Of a stretch of DNA of 7,409 nucleotides, positions 258-5,691 are shown piece by piece. The DNA lies in assembly GCA_959600065.1 (NCBI GenBank), contig CAUGKZ010000082.1:1-7409 (forward strand). The letters are read 5' to 3'. The stretch comes from an uncultured Kroppenstedtia sp. Lineage in GTDB: Bacteria; Bacillota; Bacilli; Thermoactinomycetales; DSM-45169. The notes beneath the pieces are model-generated. The model was not told the origin of the DNA. It worked only from the letters and a program-made list of their open reading frames with translations, and made no database searches. Position numbers and translations under genes: made by a program. Numbering within the stretch: position 1 is the first letter of the stretch; each line of letters starts with the position of its first letter.

Positions 258-959
258 TTATCCTCTTCTCTTCCGCTCATGTAGTGTGCGTCCCTGCTTG
301 TCTTTCCACTCTATCCAGCCATTTGCGGAACGTCCCATCACAACCGAGGCTGCTGTACTAGGTGAGCTGAACAAGTGATTCTCGTTAAAAACATAATGAT
401 CTCCACGATCAATCACAATCGCATCCTCCATCAACCTTCGGCGCACCTTGGGAACGGTGGTTCCCTCCACACTTTTCACTACTTCTTTGGGCATCTGAGA
501 CCCACTCAGAACCACAAACCCCTCACTGGTATACTCCCCTTTGCTGGCAAATCCTTTGCGTTGACAATAGAATAAATCCTTTTCCTCAGGTCTTTGTAAT
601 CCGTCAAATGCGGGATACCCCAAGGTAGTCAGTAACAATTTAATGGTATCAAAATGGTCATATAGATCCGCCATATCTGGCTCTGGAACATAGGACTGAG
701 TGGGTACGATATCGTTTACCACCTCATACCGTTTCTTCTCAACCAGCTGTTGAAATGCATGGGATTCCAAAAACTTGACATGGGCTTTGGTAAATAACAA
801 CGCCTTAGTTGTAAATGCGATAGCAACGTTCCAAAAGTCTTTCTGTTTGTGATGTTGGAGCAATCGATCATAACAGTTTTCAGCCTCTCCTACATAAACC
901 TGAGGCTTGGAACCATCTTCAGATATCCCGAAAAGGAAATAAAGGCCTACCTGTTTCAC
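258..959 (-). CDS. Catalytic part of the GIY-YIG/DUF4357 nuclease, as the longest uninterrupted ORF
   Basis: This is the 233-residue open stretch an automatic annotation would report, from a GTG. It holds a GIY-YIG core: Gly-Leu-Tyr at residues 5-7, Tyr-Val-Gly at 23-25, Arg32 in the following helix and a candidate metal-binding Glu65 in Lys-Phe-Leu-Glu-Ser. A DUF4357-type segment follows at about 184-228, ending Asn-Gly-Trp-Ile-Glu-Trp. The expected catalytic elements are present, so this part could fold and act as a nuclease if translated. The start is poor: the only good Shine-Dalgarno, AGGAGG at 976-981, overlaps the TAG and lies about 17 bases upstream, and the nearer ATG at 964 opens only a two-codon frame. 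I infer the GTG is not the ancestral start; the true gene starts at 1103. If the domain is made today, it is probably by restart after the TAG. Confidence 0.6.
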   Translation of the reverse strand: MKQVGLYFLFGISEDGSKPQVYVGEAENCYDRLLQHHKQKDFWNVAIAFTTKALLFTKAHVKFLESHAFQQLVEKKRYEVVNDIVPTQSYVPEPDMADLYDHFDTIKLLLTTLGYPAFDGLQRPEEKDLFYCQRKGFASKGEYTSEGFVVLSGSQMPKEVVKSVEGTTVPKVRRRLMEDAIVIDRGDHYVFNENHLFSSPSTAASVVMGRSANGWIEWKDKQGRTLHERKRRG

Positions 960-1125: not shown

Positions 1126-1162
1126 GATCAGAATTGATTAGACGATAAGATCAAAATTGATT
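1126..1162. repeat. Two near-identical 14-bp direct repeats
   Basis: GATCAGAATTGATT (1126-1139) and GATCAAAATTGATT (1149-1162) differ at one base and start 23 bases apart. Each is partly self-complementary (ATCAA-AA-TTGAT in the second). They lie at the junction between the membrane-protein stop codon and the nuclease start. A local duplication or a pair of protein-binding sites are both possible. Confidence 0.4.
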
Positions 1163-2050
1163 TTTCTTGGAATGAAAAACATGGGCCAGAGAGTACATGT
1201 TGGTAAACAAAGTGACCGGGCTGTTGGCGAAAACATACCACTTATAAATATCGAGATACTCTTTTATTTCATTATTTAGTCGGTCCGGATAATATACCAC
1301 CATCGGAATTGGCAAATCGGAGTCTTTCTTAATCTGTTTCAAAACTTTTATTAAATCTGAATCCCGTTGATCCTCTGCATTCAAATCATATTCATATACA
1401 ATAATATCCACTTCGTTCAGCTTTAAAAGCTGTGATAGACGATGGTAAGGCGGAGCTTCATAATCGATCTTCAAATTTTTATCCAAAGGCGAGGTGGACA
1501 AAAGTGGGCGGATATTTCCTCGATCCAAAACTAGGATTTTAGAACTCTTATACCAAACTTCCTTATCAACAAGTTCCCCGAGTTCCCCAATCCGATCCTG
1601 CAAATCAGTCACTTCATTTCCGATTACTTTTTCAAATGCCTGTTCTGCCCTTCCTTCAAATTGATTCTGAACAGTATTTTCCACATCCTTTTTTATCTCT
1701 TCTGCTTTTTCATCCGCCCGCTTTTTTATACCTTTGACTGATTTTACGTCAAAAAAAATCAGAGTAGCACCAATGACTGTGACCACAAGCGGGAGGACAC
1801 ATTGTAATAGATTAATAAACCGATCCCATTCCCCTTCGACAAACTCCCGATAGGACTTGGTTTCTTCTTTGAGGTAGTCATAACTGTCGTTTTTAGCACT
1901 CAACTGATTCATCTCTTTTTCCAGCTGTTCCACTTTCTCCGACAGGTCTGGATCCGCTTTTTCTGCCGCCGATACGTCAGTATGAAGGGTTAAAAAGGAA
2001 GTGAGGAAAAAGACGACGATCATTCCCCAAAAAGATGCTCTTTTACTCAT
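1151..2050 (-). CDS. Membrane-anchored coiled-coil protein with a receiver-like C-terminal domain
   Basis: The 299-residue product starts at ATG 2050, chosen because AAGGAGG at 2062-2068 lies 11 bases upstream. An in-frame ATG at 2080 has no such site and would put ten charged residues before the signal sequence. Residues 1-29 look like a signal peptide: Lys3-Arg4, hydrophobic stretch 8-22, then Val-Ser-Ala-Ala. Residues 30-75 are charged and coiled-coil-like, 80-100 form one membrane helix, and 105-165 are a long charged helical stalk. Residues 170-295 alternate strands and helices (KILVLD; DIIVYEYD; IPMVVYY; YVFANSP) like a CheY-type receiver. The usual acidic pair after strand 1 and the lysine before the last proline are not seen, so phosphorylation is doubtful. 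If a signal peptide is cleaved, the C-terminal domain would be cytoplasmic. I infer a membrane-tethered signalling or effector role in the cluster; no named family is recognised. The gene is visibly more A+T-rich than the transporter. Confidence 0.8.
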   Translation of the reverse strand: MSKRASFWGMIVVFFLTSFLTLHTDVSAAEKADPDLSEKVEQLEKEMNQLSAKNDSYDYLKEETKSYREFVEGEWDRFINLLQCVLPLVVTVIGATLIFFDVKSVKGIKKRADEKAEEIKKDVENTVQNQFEGRAEQAFEKVIGNEVTDLQDRIGELGELVDKEVWYKSSKILVLDRGNIRPLLSTSPLDKNLKIDYEAPPYHRLSQLLKLNEVDIIVYEYDLNAEDQRDSDLIKVLKQIKKDSDLPIPMVVYYPDRLNNEIKEYLDIYKWYVFANSPVTLFTNMYSLAHVFHSKKNQF

Positions 2051-2061
2051 TCTCTCTGTTT

Positions 2062-2068
2062 CCTCCTT
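2062..2068 (-). promoter_or_regulatory. Ribosome binding site fixing the start of the membrane protein
   Basis: AAGGAGG on the minus strand, 11 bases before ATG 2050. It lies inside the longer in-frame reading from ATG 2080 and so argues for the shorter protein beginning Met-Ser-Lys-Arg. Confidence 0.7.
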
Positions 2069-2235
2069 AGGTAAATACATAGATCATTTTGCGTTATTAC
2101 CACGGTCAGATCATTCTACGGAGAGCTGCCAGCCCACAATTCTCAGGTGAGATCCAACATCAAGCTGTGATGAAATTACAGGGGAAAGCAACCATGAAAG
2201 GGTGTTAACTTGTTCCCAAGGTCGGTCTTCCTGGC

Positions 2236-2580
2236 TCACTTAATCATGTCCATCACCGACGAAATCACCTGACCCACTGCTGAGGTAGCACCAAAGGCGG
2301 CTTGCCATTTTTGCAAGCGATCTAGCAGAAGATTGGAGAGCGATTTCCCCTCCTGACCTCCCTTGCGGATCATTTCTAAGATTTCATAGGTTGATTCCTT
2401 TTCTTCTTCTGGAATCCGATCTGTATCTGCCAATAACTGTCGGAGTTCCTGAATCAGACGGCCCAGTTCGTCTCCCTGTCCATTAGAAACGTAGATGGTA
2501 GACCCATGATTGGCAAAGTTGACTTGACTTCCAGAAGCATTATGAAAGACCACGTGTTCGGAGTGCTTCTCTTCTGTCAT
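2236..2580 (-). CDS. Small putative adaptor: Asn/Gly beta-strand motif plus helical body
   Basis: The 114-residue protein starts at ATG 2580, which shares one base with the helicase stop (TGATG). AAGGGAG at 2588-2594 is seven bases upstream. A TTG one codon earlier is less likely. Residues 9-33 are strand-forming and rich in Asn, Gly, Ser and His (Asn-Phe-Ala-Asn-His-Gly-Ser-Thr-Ile-Tyr-Val). Residues 37-52 and 56-72 form charged amphipathic helices, 79-95 another, and 96-114 a Gly/Ala-rich, mildly hydrophobic C-terminal helix. There is no signal peptide or catalytic motif. The layout resembles small helper proteins of bacterial conflict systems that pair an N-terminal strand motif with a helical bundle; that is a resemblance by eye, not a family assignment. 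The strand motif recurs at the helicase C-terminus, so I infer a physical partner of the helicase, made in coupled amounts. Confidence 0.8.
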   Translation of the reverse strand: MTEEKHSEHVVFHNASGSQVNFANHGSTIYVSNGQGDELGRLIQELRQLLADTDRIPEEEKESTYEILEMIRKGGQEGKSLSNLLLDRLQKWQAAFGATSAVGQVISSVMDMIK

Positions 2581-5500
2581 CAAATATCTCCCTTCGGTTT
2601 CTGTTCAATATTGTCAATCTGGATCCTCGATTGATTATCTGCGTAATTGATGATGCCATGATTGATGACAGTAGTTTTGGAAATTCCTTTGGCTGATTTG
2701 GCCATTCTTTTGTTCATCCTGCCAACCATGGCCTCAATCTGCTCTGCAGGAATCTCCGCTCTGCTCGGCGGCAATCGGTGCAGTCGCTGTTTCAACTTGC
2801 CAGAGGGTTTGTGGCTCATCCGCCCAAACACCTCCATATCCCCGAAGACCAAAAAAGATTCCTTCGCCCGGGATACTGCCACATTTAGCAAATAGCGGGT
2901 GTTATCGTAAAACAACGACTGATTGCGATGATTTGGTCCTCCATAGGTGGCGGAGAAAAGGATAATATCCTTTTCCGCACCCTGCAACGAATGCACCGTA
3001 TCCACAGTCAGGCCCTCGATCTGATACTCATTTTTCAAATATCTGCTGATCAAGTTGGCCTGTTTGCGGAAAGGGGTGACGACAGCGATGATATCCTCCA
3101 ATCGTCGGGTTCCTCCCGTCCATTCATCCTTCATCTGATGAATCCACCAGGCGATGGTTGCCGCCTCTTGTTGGTTTTCCCAACTCCCTCCCACACGTTC
3201 AGCTGTACCTACCACATGCAGGTACCCCATTCGGGGAAGGTCCCTATATATTTCCTCACCGGGAGCGGGATTCTTGGTTCGCGGCACCAGGCGCCCCTGA
3301 TAGCACAAATCGTTGCAGTATTGAATGATGTCCTCCCGGCAACGGTAATGATCGGTCAGCCACATCCCCCCTAAATCGTCGGGTTTTCCAAACCGGCTCA
3401 CCCGCTGGGCGATCTTCATCACACTGCCGTCCGAGACAGCCAGTCCGCTTTGGCTAAAATGGTCAAAGCTTGTCCCTTCAGATAAAAAACCGAACAGGTT
3501 CACGTTGGCTTCATCAACAGTAGAATTGACCCGCGGGATTGGCTGTAGCTGTTCCGTATCCCCCACCACCAGTGCTCGATCGGCCAAAGCAAAAACGGGT
3601 CCAGCCTGCTCAGGCGTGACTTGCCCTGCCTCATCGATAATAAGGAGATCGATGAAACCGTATAGATAATTCTCCGGGTCCCGAAAACTTCGAAAAAAAT
3701 TTGGAGCAGAAGCCAAGGTGGACACGAGACACGGTGTCAATTTGGCATATCGACGCCACCCTGTTCCATCCTGTTCCTCAGAAGGGCTTTCTGTTCTCTC
3801 CTGGAGCCAACGAGATTCCCAATAATGGGTGGCCAATAGGAAAGCCTTGTATCTCAAATGGGTGTCCAGATAAGTGAACCAGTCCTCCTCCGGGGAACTT
3901 TTAGACCGATGCTTCTCCTTCCACTCGACCCATTTCTCTTCCAGCTTTTCCATCCGGTCCCGAAACTCTATTAATTTGTGAAGTCGTTGGTTGTGCTCGG
4001 TGTACTTCTTTTGTGCCTCGATCTCTCTTCGAGACAACTCCTCTCTTACAGCTATATCTTTATATGAAGAGAAGGACATCTCTACTCTCTTTTCTCGCAT
4101 AAACGATTCATTAGCCACCGACTGCAGAAATCCGAGAAAGGGATGCAGAAAGGAACGGTTTTTCACATCCTTCAACCAATCGGAATAAAGGGATTCCAGG
4201 CGCTGATGCTCTTCACGGGACTGCCCTTCTGCCACGGTTGCCTTGGCAATGGCTTGCTCCAACCCCTCCCAGGATTGAAATTCCGTTTCCAAGCGCTTTT
4301 GCAATCGTTTCCGTTCATGAAATTGGATAATCATGTCCTCCATCGTTTCGCAAACATCGGAGAGTTCGCGATGCAACCGTTGCTTCGCCTGGTTCAAATC
4401 CGTTACGGAGTCCCCAAAATATTGCCTACATCGATAAAGGAAATGATCCACCTGACTTTGCAGGTTTTCCTTTTCCAAATCAGCGACAAACCCGATCATT
4501 TCCTCCCGCCGACCCCCTCGTGTTCTTTGCCGGAGAACAGAAGGATATTTTTGCTGTTGTTTCTCGAACATGGTCTTGGAGGCACAAAACAAACCATAAC
4601 TGTTCACCCCAGGAATCCAACGGGAAGCCAGTGGATACAGCTCTTTTGCCTTCGGATCCGTTGCCCCCGCTTTTTGAAAGCTATCCAGGATGTTTAATAT
4701 CGCACGATTATTGCTGGAAGCAGCCAATATCACCGGAGGTTCCTTCCCATCCAAGGCCCGTCCAATCCACAGAGAGGAGACCACGCTTTGGATCAGGGTC
4801 GTCTTTCCCGTACCTGGCGGTCCGTTGACTCCCAATACCTCCCCTGCTTCCAAAGCAAAAAAATGGTGAAGGGTTTCCCGCTGGGAAGAAGTGAGGGGAT
4901 ATTGGTCCGTCATCTGCCCGTAATGTCGGGTTCCATAGTCACCGTGCTCTTCCAGCGTGTTCTGACTTCGTTTTTCCCTGGCTCCTGTGTAGGTTTGTAG
5001 TAGCCCAGGGTGCTGCTGTTTTCCCTTCAAAAGGTCATGGTAGCAGTTAGCGATGTGGTAATAGGCGGCACTGGCCGTCTTTCCAAACCAAACCACTGCA
5101 TGAGGAGACCGATGGTACCCCTCTAGTTCAAATCGTGCCGGTGCTTTCCCGGTCACTTTTTTGAACAGATGCTCCGCATCTCGCCAAACCATTTCCCACG
5201 TTCCCTGTTCCGGATGGGGATGCTTGTTCCGATATTCTTCCCATGCCGCTAATTGACCCACCACAACTGGAGTGTAAGTCTGATCGAAAGGCTCTAGATA
5301 CTTTCTCGGTACAAACGAAGGGTTGTCCTTATTTGGGTGCAAAGACCCGTCTTCCTCTAACCGAGCTGGGATCACTAAAGGAAACAAGCGGCGATCCCGA
5401 TCCCCTTTCTTTCCTTTTTGTTCACGAAACAAAGGAAAAGGGCAAATCAACACATCTAGTGATCTCTTGTGGTTCCAATCCGCCTTTTTCTCCACAGCCT

Positions 5501-5648
5501 CAAATGAAGAAGGAGACAGCTGCCCTTCTGTAATCTCCTCACATGGGAGATCCACGTAATTGGTGATCTGAGATTCCTGAAAATCCAATCGATCCCCGTC
5601 TTCCACGCTTCTTTGCCAGTAACGGAGCACTCTCTTCGTGTTGTCCAA
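2580..5648 (-). CDS. Superfamily 1 UPF1/DNA2-like helicase with a long coiled-coil insert
   Basis: The product is about 1022 residues (counted from TTG 5648), an NTP-driven helicase or translocase. Motifs in order: a Q-motif-like Leu-Thr-Ser-Ser-Gln at 252-256, Walker A GPPGTGKTT at 276-284, Walker B DEAG at 672-675, GDTEQLQP at 696-703, DHYR at 766-769, TVHSLQGAEKD at 884-894 and NVAVSRAK at 922-929. All key residues are intact. About 390 residues separate Walker A from B, including heptad-like charged helices near 418-490 and 530-585. The first ~250 residues are an unassigned domain. I see no nuclease domain. The extreme C-terminus (about 992-1013) is a short Asn-rich strand motif matching the N-terminus of the next protein. 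Start: AAGGGG at 5655-5660 is six bases before TTG 5648; ATG 5654 directly abuts it, and GTG 5684 coincides with the predicted transcription start. The gene is first in the cluster and overlaps the next gene by one base. Confidence 0.9.
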   Translation of the reverse strand: MDNTKRVLRYWQRSVEDGDRLDFQESQITNYVDLPCEEITEGQLSPSSFEAVEKKADWNHKRSLDVLICPFPLFREQKGKKGDRDRRLFPLVIPARLEEDGSLHPNKDNPSFVPRKYLEPFDQTYTPVVVGQLAAWEEYRNKHPHPEQGTWEMVWRDAEHLFKKVTGKAPARFELEGYHRSPHAVVWFGKTASAAYYHIANCYHDLLKGKQQHPGLLQTYTGAREKRSQNTLEEHGDYGTRHYGQMTDQYPLTSSQRETLHHFFALEAGEVLGVNGPPGTGKTTLIQSVVSSLWIGRALDGKEPPVILAASSNNRAILNILDSFQKAGATDPKAKELYPLASRWIPGVNSYGLFCASKTMFEKQQQKYPSVLRQRTRGGRREEMIGFVADLEKENLQSQVDHFLYRCRQYFGDSVTDLNQAKQRLHRELSDVCETMEDMIIQFHERKRLQKRLETEFQSWEGLEQAIAKATVAEGQSREEHQRLESLYSDWLKDVKNRSFLHPFLGFLQSVANESFMREKRVEMSFSSYKDIAVREELSRREIEAQKKYTEHNQRLHKLIEFRDRMEKLEEKWVEWKEKHRSKSSPEEDWFTYLDTHLRYKAFLLATHYWESRWLQERTESPSEEQDGTGWRRYAKLTPCLVSTLASAPNFFRSFRDPENYLYGFIDLLIIDEAGQVTPEQAGPVFALADRALVVGDTEQLQPIPRVNSTVDEANVNLFGFLSEGTSFDHFSQSGLAVSDGSVMKIAQRVSRFGKPDDLGGMWLTDHYRCREDIIQYCNDLCYQGRLVPRTKNPAPGEEIYRDLPRMGYLHVVGTAERVGGSWENQQEAATIAWWIHQMKDEWTGGTRRLEDIIAVVTPFRKQANLISRYLKNEYQIEGLTVDTVHSLQGAEKDIILFSATYGGPNHRNQSLFYDNTRYLLNVAVSRAKESFLVFGDMEVFGRMSHKPSGKLKQRLHRLPPSRAEIPAEQIEAMVGRMNKRMAKSAKGISKTTVINHGIINYADNQSRIQIDNIEQKPKGDI

Positions 5649-5654
5649 TTTCAT

Positions 5655-5660
5655 CCCCTT
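5655..5660 (-). promoter_or_regulatory. Ribosome binding site deciding the helicase start
   Basis: AAGGGG, continuing as AAGGGGATGA, matches the AAGGAGGTGA consensus at eight of ten bases. It is well spaced (six bases) for TTG 5648, has zero spacing to ATG 5654, and is downstream of GTG 5684. Confidence 0.55.
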
Positions 5661-5691
5661 CGCCAAAATATTTATTATAATCACGAATATT

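What the first reader, a model, noticed from the sequence alone, without database searches (positions are those of the whole stretch)
2482..2651. Same short strand motif at the helicase C-terminus and the adaptor N-terminus
The last residues of the helicase contain I-N-Y-A-D-N-Q-S-R-I-Q-I-D-N (bases 2610-2651) and the first residues of the next protein contain V-N-F-A-N-H-G-S-T-I-Y-V-S-N (2482-2523). Aligned without gaps they share N, A, S, I and N, with V/I, F/Y, N/D and V/I as conservative changes. Both also contain Asn-His-Gly next to this element. Matching motifs at the end of one protein and the start of its genetic neighbour are how amyloid-signalling pairs (HET-s, RHIM-like and bacterial NLR-associated motifs) are organised. 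I infer that helicase activation could template or recruit the small protein through strand pairing.
Basis: partly seen in the sequence, partly recalled or inferred. Interest (0 to 1): 0.8.

Follow-up and report, generated by a model that had tools for sequence, protein, structure and literature searches.

The report
Helicase and partner share matched motifs
In a group of relatives of Bacillus, a helicase resembling an anti-phage protein ends in a short motif that matches the start of the small protein encoded next to it, and the two motifs differ together from genome to genome, so the motif likely lets the helicase recruit its partner by amyloid-like pairing, as some immune receptors do.

Summary
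The two 14-residue segments lie at the stated coordinates and are the best of 103,121 ungapped 14-mer comparisons between the proteins. Alone they are weak evidence (shuffle p 0.013). The family decides it. In 16 of 16 loci (window included) with this helicase beside this small-protein family, the ORF that best matches the small protein's N-terminus is the adjacent helicase tail. By eye the motifs fall into six types, and both partners change type together (0 of 100,000 permutations; three control regions negative). At 166 identical residues, codons are shared no more than chance (77 against 75.2), so the match is kept at protein level. Tail-less and PLD-bearing helicases lack the partner (7 of 7). 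Natural helicase-motif-helix fusions exist. The same small family also stands beside NACHT receptors and likely membrane proteins with matching motifs; where several pairs share a genome, 12 of 12 small proteins fit their own partner best. I read this as NLR-type amyloid signalling with a Mokosh-II-like SF1 helicase as receptor. Motif matching is well supported; amyloid structure, defence function and a membrane effector are inferred.

The parts
2580..5684 (-). SF1 (UPF1-like, AAA_11/AAA_12) helicase, 1034 aa, related to Mokosh type II MkoC but without the PLD domain; predicted receptor
   Evidence: Pfam AAA_12 9.3e-25 and AAA_11 1.7e-15; PADLOC MkoC 916 bits over profile positions 4-967 of 1136; no PLD family among the 21 Pfam matches
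   Evidence: same place in homologues
2236..2580 (-). small protein, 114 aa from ATG: N-terminal motif plus helical domain; predicted effector or adaptor
   Evidence: ORF; 92% identical to K. eburnea P0001; PADLOC PDC-M14B C-terminal part 9.9e-10
   Evidence: modelled as disordered in the monomer
2242..2469 (-). four-helix domain of the small protein (residues 38-113), with a hydrophobic last helix
   Evidence: AlphaFold2 block-mean pLDDT 74-89 from residue 41 on, helices 38-51, 58-72, 78-96, 101-113; hydrophobicity
2578..2582 (-). TGATG overlap of helicase stop and small-protein start, suggesting translational coupling
   Evidence: sequence

Best explanation
The helicase and the small protein next to it carry matched motifs and likely work as receptor and partner: the helicase's C-terminal motif is predicted to nucleate an amyloid-like assembly with the matching N-terminal motif of the small protein. 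Shown: matched motifs within each locus, joint change across six motif types, a match kept at protein rather than DNA level, natural fusions, joint absence of tail and partner, and the same small family beside NACHT receptors and likely membrane proteins with matching motifs. Inferred: the helicase engages foreign or aberrant nucleic acid; this clusters or exposes its tail; tails line up in cross-beta register and convert or recruit many copies of the small protein; the crowded four-helix domains with their hydrophobic last helix then act, perhaps at the membrane, as the output. It would be the logic of NLR amyloid signalling with an SF1 helicase in place of the NLR, and with the small protein in place of the PLD nuclease that ends Mokosh type II helicases.
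For: Permutation test on 15 helicase/small pairs: matched mean 55.5, mismatched 29.4, 0 of 100,000 permutations; control regions p 0.15, 0.64, 0.10. Scan over all ORFs of at least 50 aa per locus: the adjacent motif carrier is the top hit in 16 of 16 helicase loci and 9 of 12 other loci. 25 pairs: 0 of 200,000; control with the small protein's C-terminus 1,801 of 20,000. Within one genome, own partner best for 12 of 12 small proteins; exact joint p 0.0035. Within motif class p 0.0035 over 13 loci. Same codon at 77 of 166 identical residues, 75.2 (sd 6.1) expected. Fusions P0005, P0008 (same length and C-terminus as L023), P0017, P0053, L028, the first four of these chains other than P0053 on separate branches of a core tree with L028. 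7 of 7 tail-less or PLD helicases without the partner. NACHT/STAND receptors with a matching N-terminal motif beside the same small family (L104, L106).
Against: No tool here shows cross-beta structure. The window's own pair is among the weakest: its small protein scores 34 with its own tail and 42, 43 and 52 with the three other class A tails, and six of the other 24 small proteins fit the window helicase better. Own partner ranks first in only 9 of 15 and 15 of 25. Motif class largely follows the helicase core tree, so the pairs are not fully independent. Position is reversed relative to BASS systems (receptor C-terminus, partner N-terminus). Motif models have pLDDT under 50. The helical domain matches no solved fold significantly (0 matches at E 0.001 or better), so its effector role is a guess. 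Of 12 non-helicase loci, L110 and L112 show no motif partner and L111 an unclear one.
Confidence: 0.66

Rival explanations
1. The shared motif is a constitutive tether: the two tails form a small stable beta-roll or beta-sandwich complex, so the small protein is a permanent subunit and no templating or amyloid growth occurs.
For: Natural fusions make the small protein a covalent part of the helicase. The matched motifs would look the same.
Against: Short, N/G/Q-rich motifs, modelled as disordered in the monomer, and the same small family beside NACHT receptors fit inducible amyloid signalling better. Neither point is decisive.
Confidence: 0.22
2. The small protein is an inhibitor or chaperone that caps the helicase tail and keeps the system off.
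For: Overlapping or closely spaced genes and fixed pairing are also typical of toxin-antitoxin and inhibitor pairs.
Against: Fusions P0005, L023, P0017 and L028 carry both in one chain, and the small family has several kinds of partner.
Confidence: 0.08
3. The similarity is a relic: the genes arose by splitting a fused ancestor or by a small duplication, and the motifs have no joint function.
For: Fused forms exist in the same clades.
Against: Six diverged motif types still match within loci; codons at identical residues agree no more than chance; other kinds of partner protein carry the matching motif too.
Confidence: 0.03
4. Chance similarity of N/G/S-rich low-complexity ends.
For: The window pair alone has p 0.013 to 0.31.
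Against: Mismatched pairs, drawn from the same kind of ends, score 29.4 against 55.5 for matched ones; within-genome comparison.
Confidence: 0.01

Closest known systems
BASS: NLR-associated bacterial amyloid signalling sequences with BELL effectors (Dyrka et al. 2020, not held; known to me here through passages of PMC7889193 and PMC8086366)
   Same: Adjacent or overlapping gene pair; same short motif in receptor and small helical partner; many motif families; described in filamentous bacteria (the window's order is filamentous too: recalled)
   Different: Receptor is an SF1 helicase, not an NLR; motif at receptor C-terminus and partner N-terminus, the reverse of BASS; helical domain not shown to be BELL; motif not tested against BASS 1-10 profiles
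Mokosh type II (MkoC) anti-phage helicase
   Same: Helicase body aligns over MkoC profile positions 4-967 with 916 bits
   Different: The C-terminal PLD domain is missing; a motif tail and a separate motif-bearing helical protein stand in its place
HET-S/NWD2 and RHIM/PP amyloid signalling of fungi and animals
   Same: Matched short motifs in receptor and effector encoded side by side (NWD2/HET-S; abstract start)
   Different: No RHIM family among the Pfam matches at E up to 1; receptor type and motif sequence differ
PADLOC candidate PDC-M14B
   Same: 18 of 19 small proteins match a PDC-M14B model at E up to 0.1; for the window the match is to its C-terminal part. The L071 member has motif plus helical domain
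   Different: PDC-M14B has a further N-terminal domain, and in L071 stands near SNF2-helicase-like and methyltransferase-like genes (by eye)

Membership tests
BASS / NLR-associated amyloid signalling | same motif in two adjacent or overlapping genes | tested here: met
   16 of 16 helicase loci; permutation tests
BASS / NLR-associated amyloid signalling | receptor is an NLR (NACHT or NB-ARC) | tested here: not met
   Window receptor is an AAA_11/AAA_12 helicase; NB-ARC and NACHT only below cut-off at the P-loop. Met in sister locus L104
BASS / NLR-associated amyloid signalling | motif at receptor N-terminus and effector C-terminus | tested here: not met
   Reversed in the window
BASS / NLR-associated amyloid signalling | match to a BASS 1-10 profile | not tested
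   The profiles are not held by the tools
BASS / NLR-associated amyloid signalling | motif forms amyloid and cross-seeds | not testable with these tools
   Needs peptides; models of the motif have pLDDT under 50
BASS / NLR-associated amyloid signalling | BELL-type helical effector with hydrophobic helix | tested here: inconclusive
   Four helices with a hydrophobic last helix; no BELL profile held
Mokosh type II | MkoC-type helicase | tested here: met
   PADLOC MkoC 1.1e-275
Mokosh type II | PLD nuclease domain in the same protein | tested here: not met
   Profile match ends at 967 of 1136; no PLD match
RHIM | RHIM motif | tested here: not met
   No RHIM family among the Pfam matches of helicase (21 listed) or small protein (1 listed) at E up to 1

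The most novel reading that the evidence does not exclude
Amyloid signalling in bacteria is not tied to NLRs: one family of small motif-plus-four-helix proteins serves as a plug-in output for SF1 helicases, NACHT receptors and membrane proteins, each wired by its own matched motif, with several mutually insulated motif codes running in the same cell.
Probability: 0.5. Interest if true: 0.9.

Novelty: new variant of a known kind. Interest (0 to 1): 0.8.

Why it matters
A review of amyloid signalling asks outright whether signalling amyloids exist in fungi and bacteria in pathways not dependent on NLRs (PMC7889193, passage). This locus and its relatives offer a concrete, testable candidate for yes: a nucleic-acid helicase as the receptor. 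They would also show how a Mokosh-type helicase can swap a built-in nuclease for a separate motif-recruited partner, and they supply about two dozen natural matched pairs (16 with the helicase, 9 with other partners), several within one genome, to study specificity between short assembly motifs. In seven literature searches (open-licence PMC only) none of the titles and abstract starts listed described helicase-linked amyloid motifs in bacteria; the lists were capped, and most subscription papers are not in that library.

Tried and rejected
Helicase search in genome contigs gave only two loci, so whole genomes were used. The protein database gave few small-protein relatives (1 hit, 5). Plasmids: no match. 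Foldseek of the small-protein model against PDB: 118 weak matches, none at E 0.001 or better; I draw nothing from them. Last helix as a membrane anchor: best 19-residue Kyte-Doolittle means run from 0.65 to 2.12 over 15 small proteins, not decisive. Structure of the natural fusion L028: strand-turn-strand at the tail motif (residues 58-69 and 72-82 of the piece) but pLDDT under 50. The downstream membrane protein (1151-2080) was considered as the effector and set aside: by eye it does not recur behind L001 or L002. Recent duplication or gene conversion was tested and rejected.

Rows left out before counts: L026 (contig ends inside the helicase) and G063 (fragments) from the tail/partner tally; of the 39 places, 22 lie away from the helicase, 14 of these were fetched, L115 and L116 (contig end, truncated) were then left out, so 12 were scanned; L024 (tail out of frame) and L102 (helicase fragment, fetched later) are not, L024 and P0006 not. 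In one search the P0006/P0125 pair is inferred from an equal contig length (50,308). In some searches the non-helicase partner was the neighbour that I had already seen to carry a motif, which favours matched scores; L111 is included there although its best match is not at its N-terminal end. One search scans all ORFs of at least 50 aa, but its loci were fetched because of the small protein. Motif classes were assigned by eye.

Full report
What is there. The window carries, on the minus strand, a 1034-aa helicase (5684-2580) and a 114-aa protein (2580-2236) whose start overlaps the helicase stop as TGATG. The small protein is 92% identical to one named for Kroppenstedtia eburnea, so the window is from that genus or near it (order Thermoactinomycetales, filamentous Bacillota: recalled). 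The helicase is UPF1-like (AAA_11/AAA_12) and matches PADLOC MkoC over profile positions 4-967 of 1136 at 916 bits. The end of that profile, where the PLD nuclease of Mokosh type II would lie, is missing. A table in PMC10952713 (one passage) lists a PLD-like domain for Mokosh types I and II.

The observation. The pair alone is modest evidence (p 0.013 on 40-residue ends; p 0.31 against the whole helicase). The NHG detail is inexact: it precedes the element in the helicase and lies inside it in the small protein.

Homologous loci. 18 of 42 genomes of the order hold the helicase at E 1e-60 or better. Of these, 14 have the two-gene arrangement, two a fusion (G011, G013), one is tail-less (G007) and one ends at a contig end (G012). 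With the window and L102 (helicase fragment at a contig start) this makes 16 two-gene loci. By eye the motif types differ widely: INYA..GSTI in the window, L001, L002, L024, L025; N.GQ....ATQN in L027, L029, L030, L032; SQ.G.N.NA in L036, L037, L102; GNVTG.IV in L033, L035; another in L034; STYVEGD in L038. In each locus the helicase tail carries the same type as its own small protein. In L024 the tail sits in another frame than the helicase body.

Tests. (1) 15 pairs, tail 45 against N-terminal 45 residues: matched mean 55.5, mismatched 29.4, 0 of 100,000 permutations; own partner ranks first for 9 of 15. Helicase region -100 to -55, small C-terminus and helicase N-terminus as controls: p 0.15, 0.64, 0.10. 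(2) For each locus, the small protein's first 42 residues against every other ORF of at least 50 aa (19 to 99 ORFs): the adjacent helicase tail is the top hit in 16 of 16, in L024 as the out-of-frame tail ORF; single-locus shuffle p ranges from 0.000 to 0.31, the window being the weakest. (3) At 166 identical aligned residues in 14 loci the codon is the same at 77, against 75.2 (sd 6.1) expected from codon usage, so the match is kept at protein level. (4) Within motif classes own pairs still score above permuted ones (13 loci, p 0.0035), though not in every row: the window's small protein scores 34 with its own tail and 52 with that of L025.

Presence, absence and fusion. Six tail-less helicases (L031, L064, L066-L069) and one PLD helicase (L065) have no small partner downstream. 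G007 has no small-family match anywhere, and none of the other six genomes is among the 26 with a match. Chains that join helicase, motif and helical domain occur in P0005 (Salinithrix), P0008 (same length and C-terminus as L023), P0017, P0053 (Planifilum) and L028. On a quick tree of the helicase core (30 rows, P0053 not included) fused rows stand among two-gene rows in at least three places by eye. Motif class mostly follows that tree, so the 16 loci are not independent; the within-genome comparison below does not rest on phylogeny.

Beyond the helicase. A profile of the small proteins finds matches in 24 of 42 genomes of the order at E 0.01, and in 26 of 398 genomes of the class at 1e-6, of which 21 are among those 42. 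Of 22 places away from the helicase I scanned 12; 9 of the 12 have as top-scoring ORF an adjacent protein with a matching motif: two NACHT/Sel1 receptors with the motif at the N-terminus (L104, Pfam NACHT 3.3e-9 and 1.9e-7), a STAND/Sel1 protein (L106; NPHP3_N 1.1e-6), a receptor-like gene in pieces (L105, by eye), proteins with hydrophobic stretches that look like membrane proteins (L103, L107, by eye), a 434-aa protein (L108: HNYGGQVNVSKNNSTLHAQLTIH against YNYGGQVNISKDNSTLNANMTVN), a 254-aa protein (L109: IEGSVGGHILLGDFSNNQGNINSD against IEGNVGGSILIGDFSNNKGAINSN), and two proteins with a hydrophobic stretch and Cas4-like cysteines (L113, L114; the Cas4 likeness is recalled, Pfam gave no such match). 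L110 and L112 show no partner, L111 an unclear one. Over 25 pairs 0 of 200,000 permutations reach the matched sum; own small protein ranks first for 15 of 25 partners. In five genomes with two or three pairs each, all 12 small proteins fit their own partner best; exact joint p 0.0035. Non-helicase partners were picked after seeing their motif.

Structure. AlphaFold2 on 19 small proteins gives a disordered motif (residues 1-35, pLDDT under 50) and four helices (block means 74-89). The natural fusion L028 gives the same helical domain and a strand-turn-strand exactly at the tail motif, at pLDDT under 50. PDB search found nothing significant.

Interpretation. Shown: a matched, co-changing motif pair between a defence-type helicase and a small helical protein, and the same small family beside NACHT receptors with matching motifs. 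Inferred: strand pairing, amyloid-like growth, a helicase trigger by nucleic acid, and output by the helical domain. BASS systems share the gene-pair logic, but two of their tested features (NLR receptor, motif order) are not met in the window, so I call it a new variant that works like BASS, not a member. The review PMC7889193 (passages) asks whether signalling amyloids exist outside NLR pathways; this is a direct candidate.

Noticed in passing
window 258-959 (-): GIY-YIG/DUF4357 protein strongly matching PADLOC candidate PDC-S14 (6.7e-86), so the neighbourhood may be a defence island.
   Followed up: no
window 1151-2080 (-): 309-aa protein with hydrophobic stretches and weak matches to PADLOC C3a55 and Mem_02; not seen behind the helicase in L001 or L002.
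   Followed up: partly
L104 6243-9281 and 9521-10861: NACHT/Sel1 receptors with an N-terminal motif matching the divergently encoded small helical protein: an NLR-type pair of the same small family.
   Followed up: partly
L113 4422-5951, L114 4566-5996, L109 5099-6055: Proteins with a hydrophobic stretch and spaced cysteines recalling Cas4; those of L113 and L114 carry near their C-terminus a motif matched by the adjacent small helical protein.
   Followed up: partly
L071 4227-5048 (-): PDC-M14B protein with an N-terminal domain, a GQINVSKDNSTINA motif and the same helical domain, near a SNF2-helicase-like gene; no partner motif sought.
   Followed up: no
L024 3088-6224: Helicase reading frame breaks near its C-terminus; the motif tail lies in another frame just before the small gene.
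   Followed up: yes
G001:C132:41268-41402 (locus L100): A second, partial small-family match upstream of the Paludifilum helicase (7.1e-10).
   Followed up: no
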